A DNA stretch of 35,877 nt from positions 1 to 35,877 of the forward strand of contig JAPLIB010000039.1 of NCBI GenBank assembly GCA_026389335.1, written 5' to 3'. Shown in pieces: positions 22,376-35,741 of the stretch. Positions within the stretch are counted from its first letter, which is position 1. The number at the start of each line of letters is the position of its first letter. The notes beneath the pieces were generated by a model. That model did no database searches and had not been told where the DNA came from. It saw only the letters and a program-made list of their open reading frames with translations. Both the position numbers and the translations under genes were made by a program. The DNA comes from Cyanobacteriota bacterium. Lineage in GTDB: Bacteria > Cyanobacteriota > Cyanobacteriia > PCC-6307 > Cyanobiaceae.

Positions 22376-23089
22376 TCAGCTGATCCTGGAACGGATCCGC
22401 TTGCGAAGCTTGCGGGAGAAACCGAAAGCAGTTCCGGCGCCGAGGATTGGGAGAGGGCCGGGGACAGGAGGAGCCTTGCCATCTTCGTATTCATAGGTCA
22501 GATACAGCTGGCCAGAGAAAATGGTGGAGGTGCCAACCCCGACAGGTAAATCAGCAGTGGCCGCTGAGCCTGCAGTCGAGATAAAGCTATAGGTAGTAAC
22601 GTAAGAGGTGATTGTCGGAGATGCTGTGGAGAAATAGCTTCGGATTAGATTGTTGCTTGTGGATGTAGGTATTGGGGCGCCAGTAAAAGAGCCGCTTGCT
22701 TCTGACACAATATTGGTCGTCTCGGTATTGTCGGGTTGAAGTTTGATAGTGGATGAGGTGGCTGTTATTGTAGTGCCATTGCCAAAGGTAAAGGCGGGAG
22801 TGCCGCTGCCTGAGTAAAGGGCTCCGGTGGTAAAACCAGGAAGCAGGCCAACGTTGCCGGAAAAGCTTGCGTCTGTTCCTGTTCCAATCCTGACGCTGGT
22901 CAAGGTGCTAGGGGCCGCGGCGGTGAATGGATTGAAAGTAAGATTCTGATTGGTCTTGCTCGCTGTGCCCGAAGTGCTGAAGGAGACAGGCCCGACGGTT
23001 TGAGTTTGAAGAACCGCATGAGCTGGAGCACCGAACGCAGCTGCTGCCACTCCAGCAAAAAGCAATAAAAGGCGATTGTGTGCAGGCAT
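22376..23089 (-). CDS. Secreted protein with PEP-CTERM-like C-terminal sorting signal
   Basis: A 237-residue exported protein. The signal peptide is MPAHNRLLLLFAGVAAAAFG with cleavage after AHA. The mature part is Ser/Thr/Gly rich, mostly beta, with VGPVSFSTSGTASKTNQNLTFNPF, a start typical of the choice-of-anchor E class. The C-terminus has VPGPLPILGAGTAFGFSRKL followed by a basic run RKRIRSRIS, the cyanobacterial version of a PEP-CTERM signal (Pro-rich motif, hydrophobic helix, basic end). Such proteins are sorted by an exosortase, not encoded in this window, and often end up in the envelope or exopolysaccharide. The function is unknown. Confidence 0.75.
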   Translation of the reverse strand: MPAHNRLLLLFAGVAAAAFGAPAHAVLQTQTVGPVSFSTSGTASKTNQNLTFNPFTAAAPSTLTSVRIGTGTDASFSGNVGLLPGFTTGALYSGSGTPAFTFGNGTTITATSSTIKLQPDNTETTNIVSEASGSFTGAPIPTSTSNNLIRSYFSTASPTITSYVTTYSFISTAGSAATADLPVGVGTSTIFSGQLYLTYEYEDGKAPPVPGPLPILGAGTAFGFSRKLRKRIRSRIS

Positions 23090-34195: not shown

Positions 34196-34333
34196 AACGG
34201 TGGTAGAGCATCCCATCAGTCCTAAAGGCAGGTGCTTCAAGCGAGGGCGGAAGCCGCATCTGCCGGAAGCAGTGGCGGCTTGAGAGTGGTGTTGGAGGGT
34301 AGGGAAAGGAGGCTGGGAGTGGCTTTGGGTGGT

Positions 34334-34370
34334 GGCTTGCATGGGTGATGGCTTGCATGGGTGACGGCTT
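34334..34370 (+). repeat. 16-bp tandem repeat
   Basis: GGCTTGCATGGGTGAT (34334-34349) is followed directly by GGCTTGCATGGGTGAC (34350-34365) and a partial third copy GGCTT. It is absent from the other two cassettes, so it arose after duplication. Confidence 0.85.
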
Positions 34371-34404
34371 ACTGGGAGCGTTTATTAGGAAGTGCTGAGG
34401 GATG

Positions 34405-34433
34405 CTGACGGGGGGGAGTAGATCGGTTATAAA
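34405..34433 (+). promoter_or_regulatory. Promoter of the intact RiPP precursor
   Basis: CTGACG at 34405 and TATAAA at 34428 are 17 bases apart, a good sigma70-type pair. A start near 34440 leaves a leader of about 20 bases. The 5' leader (TTTCTTTCACTCTTTTGAT) has no Shine-Dalgarno. Confidence 0.7.
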
Positions 34434-34459
34434 AGAGCAGTTTCTTTCACTCTTTTGAT

Positions 34460-34741
34460 ATGTCAGAAGAACAGCTCTCAGCCTTGCTTGCAAAGCTCAG
34501 GGATGATGCTGGTCTCAGGGAGAAGCTTCAGGGCATTGAAGGCCTTGATGCTCTTGTAGCAATTGCTAAGGAGGCAGGCTTTGATGATGTTAGCCAAGCA
34601 GATTGGATGAAGTACCAGGTAAGTCAGAGCCAAGAGCTCAGCGATGAGGAGCTGGAGAGTGTGGCTGGCGGGGCTGCGAGCCACAGCACATGCTATATAA
34701 TTGGAAGTGTACATGCTTACGGAATCTGTCGTAGATTTTAG
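34460..34741 (+). CDS. Nif11-leader RiPP precursor, prochlorosin type
   Basis: A 93-residue precursor. The leader starts MSEEQLSALLAKLRDDAGLR, continues with the Nif11-like helix and IAKEAGFDDVSQADW, and ends in ELSDEELESVAGG, a double-glycine site cut by a C39 peptidase transporter. The core after the Gly-Gly has 22 residues, with Ser3, Ser5, Thr6, Cys7, Ser12 and Cys19 (counted from Ala1). Ser or Thr can be dehydrated and joined to the two Cys, so this is a plausible lanthipeptide of the prochlorosin kind, made by one promiscuous LanM enzyme encoded elsewhere. No such enzyme is in the window. Other Nif11-based modifications are possible. An intrinsic terminator follows. Confidence 0.85.
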   Translation: MSEEQLSALLAKLRDDAGLREKLQGIEGLDALVAIAKEAGFDDVSQADWMKYQVSQSQELSDEELESVAGGAASHSTCYIIGSVHAYGICRRF

Positions 34742-34792
34742 AATGAGCGGATATTGACTCTATGATTAGATAATGGATCATATCTCAGTCAG

Positions 34793-34818
34793 GCCCTTGC
34801 TGCCACAGGGGCTTTTGC
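34793..34818 (+). terminator. Intrinsic terminator after precursor copy 1
   Basis: GCCCTTG (34793-34799) and CAGGGGC (34806-34812) form a 7-bp stem with one G-T pair and loop CTGCCA, followed by TTTTG. It lies about 50 bases past the stop. Confidence 0.7.
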
Positions 34819-34930
34819 TTCTTCAATCAAGTCCAAATCAACCCAAGCGGCTTCCAATACCTGGCACCCATGAAACTACAGAGGTGTAGCCCTTAGGGTG
34901 CCCTTGGAGCAGAAGGGACGTACGTGGAGT

Positions 34931-35041
34931 GGATTGGGTGGTGGTTTTTTGCTTGGAGGGTTTTATGAGGAAGTGCTGAGGGATGCTGACGGGGGGAACG
35001 AAGGTGGGGTATAAAGGGAGTAGGTATTTCACTTTCTGGAC
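34931..35041 (+). repeat. Upstream block of RiPP cassette, copy 2
   Basis: Same order of elements as copy 1 without the tandem repeat: ATTGGGTGGTGG, TTTTATGAGGAAGTGCTGAG, GGATGCTGACGGGGGG, TATAAA, and TATTTCACTTTCTGGAC before ATG. Confidence 0.8.
34986..35015 (+). promoter_or_regulatory. Promoter of precursor copy 2
   Basis: CTGACG (34986-34991) and TATAAA (35010-35015) are 18 bases apart. The boxes are as good as in copy 1, so the gene is probably still transcribed although its leader carries a stop codon. Confidence 0.65.
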
Positions 35042-35293
35042 ATGTCAGAAGAATAGCTCAAAGCATTCCTGGAAGCCGTCAAGGCAGATGCGGGTCTTCA
35101 GGAAAAACTTAATGCAGCAGCGGATGCTGATGCTGTTGTGGCGATTGCCAAGGAGGTGGGATTTATGATTTCTGCAGATGAACTTCAGCGGGCTCAGGCA
35201 GTAGGGGAGGAGCTAAGCGATGAGGAGCTTGCTGGGGTGGCTGGGGGCGCGAATTCTGCAGCGCGTTGGATTCAAGGCGGCAATGTCTGCTAA
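35042..35293 (+). pseudogene. Nif11-leader RiPP precursor copy 2 with amber codon 5
   Basis: From the ATG at 35042 the frame reads MSEE, TAG (35054-35056), then LKAFLEAVKADAGLQEKLNA and on through AVVAIAKEVGFMISADEL, EELSDEELAGVAGG, and the core ANSAARWIQGGNVC before TAA. It is a complete prochlorosin-type precursor except for TAG where relatives have CAG (MSEEQLKAF). The core has one Ser and one Cys, enough for a single large ring. Inside the gene AAGGAGG lies 8 bases before ATG 35165, so a shortened 42-residue product that keeps the end of the leader and the whole core could still be made. Confidence 0.85.
35165..35293 (+). CDS. Possible internally started RiPP precursor (short leader)
   Basis: The ATG at 35165 is in frame with the broken precursor, and AGGAGG stands 8 bases ahead of it, the best Shine-Dalgarno in this region; the normal precursor starts have none. 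The 42-residue product, MISADELQRAQAVGEELSDE followed by ELAGVAGG and the core, keeps the part of the leader nearest the cleavage site. The sequence may be accidental, because the codons for AKEVG spell the same bases in copy 1. Whether a modifying enzyme accepts the short leader is unknown. Confidence 0.3.
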   Translation: MISADELQRAQAVGEELSDEELAGVAGGANSAARWIQGGNVC

Positions 35294-35326
35294 CCCCTTT
35301 CCCTAATCCTATAATCCTATCCCAAA

Positions 35327-35351
35327 GCCCCTGCCACTTCAGGGGCTTTTT
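35327..35351 (+). terminator. Intrinsic terminator after precursor copy 2
   Basis: GCCCCTG (35327-35333) and CAGGGGC (35340-35346) form a perfect 7-bp stem with loop CCACTT, flanked by AAA before and TTTTT after. It corresponds to the terminator of copy 1, so the duplicated unit includes the 3' side; CCAATACCTGGCACC occurs downstream of both. Confidence 0.8.
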
Positions 35352-35466
35352 ATTGCTTCAATAATTCCCAAAGCACCAAAAATGCACTCCAATACCTGGC
35401 ACCATCTCCCACATCAACCGCAGATATTGAGCCGCTTTTGCTGTCAAAACAAGCCTCAAATATTTT

Positions 35467-35496
35467 CACTCACAGCAGGAGGTAGCGGTGTGAGTG
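35467..35496. repeat. Short inverted repeat between cassettes 2 and 3
   Basis: CACTCACA (35467-35474) pairs with TGTGAGTG (35489-35496) around 14 bases that contain GGAGG. It has no T-run and no known role. Confidence 0.4.
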
Positions 35497-35524
35497 TCCT
35501 CTTGGAGGGGTAGGGGAAGGACTG

Positions 35525-35636
35525 GGAGTGGTTTGGGTGGTGGCTTGCTTGGTGGGATTTATGAGGAAGACCTGAGGGATGCTGAAGGGGGAATGAAGGT
35601 GGGTTATAATCGGGAAAGGTATTTCATTTCCTGGAT
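35525..35636 (+). repeat. Upstream block of RiPP cassette, copy 3
   Basis: Third copy of the block: GGAGTGGTTTGGGTGGTGGC, TTTATGAGGAAGACCTGAGG, GATGCTGAAGGGGG, TATAAT and TATTTCATTTCCTGGAT before ATG. Confidence 0.8.
35582..35610 (+). promoter_or_regulatory. Promoter of precursor copy 3
   Basis: CTGAAG (35582-35587) and TATAAT (35605-35610) are 17 bases apart. The -10 is a perfect consensus although the gene behind it is only a stub. Confidence 0.65.
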
Positions 35637-35741
35637 ATGTCAGAAGATCAGCTCAACGCTTCACTGGATGTTGAAGGTGCAAAAACTCTTGAGGAAGATG
35701 CGGAGGATGTTGAGCTAACGGATGAGGAGTTGGAGGGCTGA
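35637..35741 (+). pseudogene. Remnant RiPP precursor: leader stub without core
   Basis: The 34-residue frame MSEDQLNASLDVEGAKTLEE continues DAEDVELTDEELEG and stops at TGA. It keeps the first seven residues and the end of a Nif11-type leader (ELTDEELEG) but lacks the central helix, the VAGG cleavage site and any core. Both promoter and start context are intact, so it arose by deletion inside a cassette copy. It could yield only a short acidic peptide. Confidence 0.75.

What the first reader, a model, noticed from the sequence alone, without database searches (positions are those of the whole stretch)
34321..35741. Three tandem RiPP cassettes in graded states of decay
Three units with the same upstream block, sigma70 promoter and MSE(E/D)QL start follow one another over 1.4 kb; terminators after units 1 and 2 also match. 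Unit 1 is intact, unit 2 has a nonsense codon, unit 3 is a leader stub. The leaders are of the Nif11/prochlorosin type, known to form large families of diversified precursors served by one enzyme. This shows how such families grow, as whole promoter-to-terminator cassettes, and how they die, with promoters outliving the genes.
Basis: partly seen in the sequence, partly recalled or inferred. Interest (0 to 1): 0.78.

Follow-up and report, generated by a model that had tools for sequence, protein, structure and literature searches.

The report
Prochlorosin-type array with short-leader peptides
A cyanobacterium carries an array of small secreted-peptide genes that share one promoter element; the supposed decayed stub is most likely a gene cut by a mobile element, and it belongs to an unusual short-leader, cysteine-free branch of the family.

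Summary
The interpretation needs correcting. (1) The units carry three different leader types behind the same block; they are not one cassette at three stages of decay. (2) Unit 3 is not a rotted leader stub. A dispersed IS-like element begins at 35738 and supplies the stop codon. The element's other end opens contig C108, beside a 9-bp target duplication and the continuing frame (EGVAGG, a 9-residue core, a terminator). The array therefore most likely runs into C108, which holds the one LanM found, of ProcM type. (3) The genome has 14 such blocks, all 46-49 bp before a precursor start. (4) Nine array units have a short leader (35-39 residues when complete) that lacks the Nif11 domain but keeps the C39-protease helix and GG. 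That helix is under purifying selection (pN/pS 0.13), and no short-class core read has Cys. No other genome searched had the full short leader. Most likely this class yields C39-exported peptides without lanthionine rings. That product is inferred, not shown.

The parts
34386..34412 (+). unit 1 upstream box (direct repeat TGCTGA-N4-TGCTGA)
   Evidence: 1 mismatch; 48 bp from the 23-base core of the box to the start codon
34428..34433 (+). unit 1 -10-like TATAAA
   Evidence: read; aligned with other units
34460..34741 (+). unit 1 precursor, 93 aa, intact; subtype A Nif11 leader (71 aa) ending ESVAGG, core AASHSTCYIIGSVHAYGICRRF (2 Cys)
   Evidence: TIGR03798 68.3 bits; PF07862 48.2 bits
34791..34814 (+). 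terminator-like hairpin after unit 1
34967..34993 (+). unit 2 upstream box
   Evidence: 0 mismatches; 49 bp to the start codon
35010..35015 (+). unit 2 -10-like TATAAA
   Evidence: read
35042..35293 (+). unit 2 precursor pseudogene (TAG at codon 5); subtype B Nif11 leader, core ANSAARWIQGGNVC
35324..35349 (+). terminator-like hairpin after unit 2
35563..35589 (+). unit 3 upstream box
   Evidence: 3 mismatches; 48 bp to the start codon
35605..35610 (+). unit 3 -10-like TATAAT
   Evidence: read
35637..35737 (+). unit 3, first part of a short-leader precursor, interrupted at codon 34 by a mobile element; the rest (EGVAGG, core AWQNPQVTL, terminator) lies on G000:C108, from position 140 of the reversed contig
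35729..35737 (+). 9-bp target duplication GTTGGAGGG, repeated directly after the element's other end on C108
35738..35877 (+). left end of a dispersed IS-like element (end CTGACTGACCGACACA); runs off the contig end

Best explanation
The window ends in the 5' part of a prochlorosin-type lanthipeptide locus that most likely continues, across an inserted IS-like element, into contig C108 with its ProcM-type LanM. Each boxed precursor unit is a small transcription unit: direct-repeat box, a -10-like TATAAA/T about 17-18 bp further on (exact in 10 of 14), start codon 46-49 bp after the box, leader, GG, hypervariable core and, in 9 of 15 array units, a shared hairpin terminator. The same box drives two classes. 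Long Nif11 leaders with Cys-containing cores are presumed LanM substrates. Short leaders (35-39 aa) have lost the Nif11 domain, keep the C39-peptidase recognition helix (L-12, L-7, V-4, GG) and carry Cys-free cores of 7-19 residues. The short class is most likely cleaved and exported by a C39 transporter without thioether rings. New members arise by duplication plus replacement of the core right after GG. Unit 2 died by a nonsense codon and unit 3 by element insertion. Shown: anatomy, box, leader classes, selection on the short leader, element end inside unit 3. Inferred: the C158-C108 join, regulator binding, export, absence of LanM modification.
For: Box: 13 genome-wide matches at 3 or fewer mismatches, 0 in the reversed control; with a 14th (C108_6708) all 14 lie 46-49 bp before a precursor start (13 printed, unit 2). 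In the 11 LanM-relative loci scanned (L074-L084) a 23-base form with up to 5 mismatches hits 4 times, each 45-57 bp before a Nif11 precursor (1-4 mismatches, no chance control run). LanM: one locus, TIGR03897 675.7 bits. Short class: 6 intact array members, unit 3, 2 units that lost GG, and a stray copy on C103. Pooled pN/pS 0.32; 0.13 over the C39 helix; 0 of 1500 neutral simulations as low. Cys in 6 of 6 long-leader array cores (3 read past a stop or frameshift) against 0 of 7 short-class cores (6 array, C103), Fisher p 0.0006. Mean identity 80-98% in the last 45 nt before GG, 20-27% after it. PMC6363468 (passages): the last 13 leader residues suffice for the C39 domain LahT150, which uses V-4, L-7 and L-12. 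Insertion.
Against: The absence of Cys in short cores is not by itself beyond chance: 0 of 79 residues against 3.2% expected, p 0.077. The contrast rests on Cys enrichment in the long cores and on array units only; of the 12 other Nif11 matches read, only the C3 fusion has a GG, so they could not extend it. Cys-free cores are known on long leaders: two SyncA cores lacking Thr and Cys in KORDI-100 (PMC10783134, passage). No expression, peptide or export data exist. Much shorter class II leaders than Nif11 are known (haloduracin beta, lacticin 481), so LanM could still bind and dehydrate Ser/Thr. Two short units lost GG, and only 1 of the 6 intact short units shows the shared hairpin, so part of the class may be decaying. 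The tree-free count gives only p 0.016. The two GG-less units and C103 were left out (substitution count). The C158-C108 join rests on a 9-bp duplication inside a conserved leader and is not read across.
Confidence: 0.6

Rival explanations
1. One reading: tandem copies of one LanM-precursor cassette in successive states of decay, with unit 3 a remnant leader.
For: Shared blocks and hairpins after units 1 and 2; unit 2 nonsense codon and 3 of 4 subtype-B units broken.
Against: Unit 1 and 2 leaders are only 52% identical, while unit 1 resembles C108_5221 at 69% and unit 2 resembles C108_471 at 87%. Unit 3 belongs to a 9-member short-leader array subfamily and is cut by an element with a 9-bp duplication.
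Confidence: 0.08
2. The short-leader units are non-functional by-products: an internal deletion made them, and they spread because the promoter-bearing DNA duplicates, with random cores.
For: Core lengths (7-19) and the lack of Cys are compatible with random sequence (p 0.077). 2 of 9 short array units lost GG. 5 of 6 intact ones lack the shared hairpin. The full short leader is seen in one genome only.
Against: Seven members keep one frame through the leader; pooled pN/pS 0.32 and 0.13 over the C39 helix, 0 of 1500 neutral simulations as low.
Confidence: 0.2
3. The short-leader peptides are still LanM substrates, dehydrated at Ser/Thr without rings.
For: Same box and, for two intact units, the same contig as the LanM. 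Class II leaders much shorter than Nif11 exist. PMC2887384 (passages) expects Cys-free NHLP precursors beside LanM to stay dehydrated.
Against: The leader makes the major contribution to ProcM binding (PMC11667668, passage), and the Nif11 domain is not detected (0 of 7 Pfam matches). One of the seven array cores (YNPQKGPV) has neither Ser nor Thr.
Confidence: 0.15

Closest known systems
Prochlorosins / synechococsins (ProcA/SyncA precursors with ProcM/SyncM)
   Same: Nif11 leaders beginning MS(T)EEQL, (D/E)EELExxxGG, hypervariable cores, tandem runs, a LanM with a CCG motif. Up to 16 consecutive precursors and two cores lacking Thr and Cys are already reported (PMC10783134, sections 6 and 8 and passages).
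   Different: A direct-repeat promoter box shared by the array; a short-leader, Cys-free subfamily; an element insertion in the array.
N11P (Nif11-derived precursor peptides, TIGR03798)
   Same: Units 1 and 2 pass the family cut-off.
   Different: The short-leader class scores 14.6-16.4 bits against a cut-off of 32.3 (4 of 4 members scanned) and has no Pfam Nif11 match (0 of 7).
Short double-glycine precursors near cyanobacterial LanM and C39 clusters
   Same: A 2011 survey lists precursors of 28-164 aa, those of LanM clusters 31-151 aa with 15 in no named family (PMC3140520, passages). A double-Gly leader and a short core are thus not new as such.
   Different: Here the short leader shares its box and its first residues with the long Nif11 precursors of the same array. 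I did not see that survey's sequences, so overlap cannot be excluded.
Insertion sequences with DDE transposases (IS4-type, a label from recall)
   Same: Inverted ends, 9-bp target duplication, a frame with a weak DDE_Tnp_1 match.
   Different: No full copy was seen; the Pfam match (20.8 bits) is under the gathering cut-off of 23.

Membership tests
Nif11-leader RiPP precursors (TIGR03798), units 1 and 2 | leader above the curated cut-off | tested here: met
   68.3 and 84.2 bits vs 32.3 (unit 2 with X at its stop)
Nif11-leader RiPP precursors (TIGR03798), short-leader class | leader above the curated cut-off | tested here: not met
   14.6-16.4 bits in 4 of 4 members scanned; unit 3 fragment no match; Pfam Nif11 in 0 of 7
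Prochlorosin system | a ProcM-like LanM with CCG zinc ligands in the genome | tested here: met
   Searches (one locus; 675.7 bits vs 304), HLCCGLLGL in the translation; CCG as a ProcM-group mark from PMC10783134
Prochlorosin system | double-Gly leader end and a core with Cys, long-leader array units | tested here: met
   6 of 6 (3 of them read past a stop or frameshift)
Prochlorosin system | core with Cys, short-leader units | tested here: not met
   0 of 7 cores counted; the unit 3 core has none either
Prochlorosin system | precursor is modified by the LanM | not testable with these tools
   needs co-expression and mass spectrometry
C39-processed double-glycine peptides, short-leader class | L-12, L-7, V-4 and GG before the core | tested here: met
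   present in 6 of 6 intact array members; GG absent in the 2 truncated units and ADG in C103; motif from PMC6363468
C39-processed double-glycine peptides | a C39 transporter in the genome | tested here: met
   7 C39 matches, 6 over the cut-off; C78 and C71 proteins best match NHLM_micro_ABC1 at 647 and 624 bits, under its cut-off of 853
C39-processed double-glycine peptides | peptide is cleaved at GG and exported | not testable with these tools
   needs protease assay or peptidomics
Insertion sequence in unit 3 | inverted terminal repeats and target duplication | tested here: met
   CTGACTG(A/C)CCGACACA ends, 9-bp GTTGGAGGG on both sides; the C85 copy has a 9-bp duplication with one mismatch
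Insertion sequence in unit 3 | recognisable transposase | tested here: inconclusive
   PF01609 20.8 bits, cut-off 23; other frames of the element no match

The most novel reading that the evidence does not exclude
A lanthipeptide array has split into two product lines under one promoter element. A lineage-specific subfamily shed the Nif11 part of the leader and the ring-forming cysteines, kept the export signal under strong selection, and now makes a diversifying set of short exported peptides without rings. Current family models do not detect it at their cut-offs.
Probability: 0.38. Interest if true: 0.65.

Novelty: new variant of a known kind. Interest (0 to 1): 0.47.

Why it matters
It separates what the Nif11 domain is needed for (probably enzyme recognition) from what the last 13-15 leader residues do (protease and export), inside one natural array with a shared promoter element. 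That gives matched natural constructs for testing which leader part a promiscuous LanM needs. The box offers a way to find precursor genes that leader models miss, and a handle on when these peptides of unknown function are made.

Tried and rejected
Short-leader relatives elsewhere: 300 family genomes, own included (one hit outside, covering only the GG end), the 42 genus genomes held (one such hit, G017), 10 LanM-bearing genomes (3 GG-end hits; one of them, G319, shows the same contig as G017), GTDB contigs and viral contigs: none with the full short leader. Searches confirm by tblastn, whose low-complexity filter may mask this acidic query, so they are weak. The GC-poor stretch at 21-23 kb of the window was checked as a second array and rejected (no box there). 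Rfam and tRNA on C108 and C107:1-12000: none. A first script to read other Nif11 loci found only a false frame; one search replaced it. Printed work: searches. No short-leader, Cys-free prochlorosin subclass and no shared promoter box was seen in those listings or in the parts read of 8 papers. The 2017 PNAS study of lanthipeptide radiation is not held; I know it by recall only. This is not proof of novelty. One search was an invalid query.
Full report
What is in the window. Three units lie at 34386-35737, each with the block GAGGAAGTGCTGAGGGATGCTGACGGG (3 matches at 3 or fewer mismatches, none in 100 shuffles), a TATAAA/TATAAT, and a start MSE(E/D). Units 1 and 2 are Nif11-leader precursors by NCBIfam and Pfam (unit 2 with X at its stop); the unit 3 peptide matched nothing there. 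Unit 1 is intact; unit 2 has TAG at codon 5. Hairpins follow units 1 and 2 (3 in the region, 1.5 expected). The sigma70 scan finds 3 sites (1.2 expected), none in the blocks. Instead a direct repeat TGCTGA-N4-TGCTGA sits at the -35 position. A 10-bp repeat there would suit an OmpR/PhoB-type activator; that is inference from recall.

The genome. It has 19 Nif11-leader matches at E 0.01 or better, one LanM match and 7 C39 matches, 6 over the cut-off. The LanM on C108 scores 675.7 bits as TIGR03897 and shows HLCCGLLGL, the CCG mark of the ProcM group (PMC10783134, section 6). Of 13 named relatives of this LanM, the closest is 97% identical (Synechococcus sp. UW140 MAG), then 84% and 75% (uncultured cyanobacteria); the most distant are a Roseovarius and an acidobacterial MAG. 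Habitat was not tested.

The box is a precursor promoter element. A 134-base piece of unit 2's upstream region finds 14 places: 3 on C158, 5 on C108, 6 on C107. A 26-base pattern finds 13 places in the genome and none in the reversed control. With the fourteenth, all lie 46-49 bp before a precursor start (unit 2). TATAAA or TATAAT is exact in 10 of the 14 (read). The one array precursor without the box, C108_5221 just after LanM, is at background identity upstream (29-40%), against 53-73% for unit 1 and 56-96% among the rest. In the relatives' loci L074-L084 the box, with 1-4 mismatches of 23, hits 4 times, each 45-57 bp before a Nif11 precursor (no chance control; alignments).

Three leader types. 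Unit 1 (type A) resembles C108_5221 at 69%. Unit 2 (type B) resembles C108_471 at 87%. Units 1 and 2 share only 52%. Unit 3 belongs to a third, short type: MSEEQLNASLDAEGAKxLEE..DVELTDEELEGVAGG. Of 15 array starts, type A has 2 of 2 intact; type B 1 of 4 intact, the others with a stop or frameshift; the short type 6 of 9 intact, one interrupted by the element (unit 3), two lacking GG (C107_1594, C107_3525). The shared hairpin is seen in 9 of 15 units (8, unit 1), but in only 1 of the 6 intact short units. A stray short copy on C103 ends in ADG instead of AGG.

Unit 3 is an insertion mutant. From 35738 the window matches 19 other places in the genome at 78% or more, 6 of them at 99% or more. 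Of 15 copies fetched (of 19), 11 stop within 2 bases of a contig end. The repeat starts at one fixed point, CTG(A/G)CTG.C.GA. Better preserved copies show the inverted right end and a transposase-like frame with a sub-threshold DDE_Tnp_1 match. The reversed contig C108 begins with the right end, then GTTGGAGGG, the nine bases that precede the left end in unit 3, then the frame EGVAGG, AWQNPQVTL, stop, and the usual hairpin. A degenerate copy on C85 shows a 9-bp duplication with one mismatch. The simplest reading is one insertion, so the window array runs into C108 with LanM about 1.6 kb beyond. A second short unit interrupted at the same site would look alike, so long reads are needed.

The short class. 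It is 30-34 residues shorter than the 69-residue unit 2 leader; the alignment gaps lie in the middle. It fails the Nif11 models: 14.6-16.4 bits vs 32.3 in 4 of 4 scanned; 0 of 7 Pfam Nif11 matches. Among 7 members (the two GG-less units and C103 left out), pooled pN/pS is 0.32: 0.50 over residues 1-20 and 0.13 over the C39 helix. None of 1500 neutral simulations was as low overall or over the helix; for residues 1-20 P was 0.044. A tree-free count gives p 0.016, and an open frame alone is not remarkable (0.16 by that count; 0.08 in the simulation). The kept part matches what a C39 domain needs: LahT150 cuts substrates with only the last 13 leader residues, uses V-4, L-7 and L-12, and still cuts ProcA2.8 lacking its first 10, 20 or 30 residues (PMC6363468, passages).

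Cores. Between the 6 intact short copies mean identity is 80-98% in the last 45 nt before GG and 20-27% after it; random is 25% (15 pairs). Three type-B copies fall from 71% to 27% at the same place, then 24-40% (3 pairs; the frameshifted one left out). C107_1594 and C107_3525 are 96% identical over 110 nt upstream and 100% over 69 nt of leader, then 16% over 45 nt. So duplication keeps promoter and leader while the core is exchanged or rewritten. Conserved leaders with variable cores are known for prochlorosins. Cys: 6 of 6 long-leader array cores vs 0 of 7 short-class cores, p 0.0006 (array alone 6 of 6 vs 0 of 6, p 0.002); by residue 9 of 91 vs 0 of 79, p 0.004. Against random codons the long cores are enriched (p 0.003), but the short cores are only marginally poor (p 0.077). 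Twelve other Nif11 matches of the genome were read; only the C3 fusion has a GG, so they add nothing to this contrast. The lack of Cys fits loss of selection for rings as well as selection against Cys.

Spread. The short-leader profile hits the own genome 10 times and no full leader in 299 other family genomes, 41 other genus genomes (overlapping sets) or 10 LanM-bearing genomes. The closest relative's lan contig is short (6.5 kb, L074), so its lack of short units is weak evidence.

Conclusion. The finding is a real prochlorosin-type array, a known kind: tandem runs of up to 16 and some Cys-free cores are already reported. The decay story is wrong for unit 3 and right for unit 2. What stands out is the short-leader, Cys-free subfamily under the same promoter box, with selection concentrated on the export signal. 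The product and its export are inferred.

Noticed in passing
window 34326-34370: A 16-bp unit (TGGGTGATGGCTTGCA) repeated 2.8 times just upstream of the unit 1 box, in the GT-rich stretch that precedes the boxes.
   Followed up: partly
L070:8936-10891 (G000:C3, minus strand): A 651-aa frame that begins with a Nif11 leader match ending AVIGG and continues as what looks by eye like a glycosyltransferase, near a C39 transporter and a HlyD-type protein.
   Followed up: no
L043:80-1450 (G000:C107 start): C107 opens with a right end of the same element type; next to it lie a tyrosine recombinase frame (PF00589) and a short frame that by eye resembles the C-terminus of UvrA.
   Followed up: no
L068, G000:C103:1145-1261 minus strand: A solitary short-leader relative ending in VADG, outside the array and not among the 14 box places.
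   Followed up: partly
window 22376-23089 and L042:342-995: Two proteins with similar C-termini (PGPLPI..F..SRKLRKRI), PEP-CTERM-like by eye; the L042 one matches the DVUA0089 family.
   Followed up: no
L042:2077-2379 minus strand: A further Nif11-like frame (100 aa, LVGG, Ala/Ser-rich end) between two broken type-B units, below the family cut-offs.
   Followed up: no
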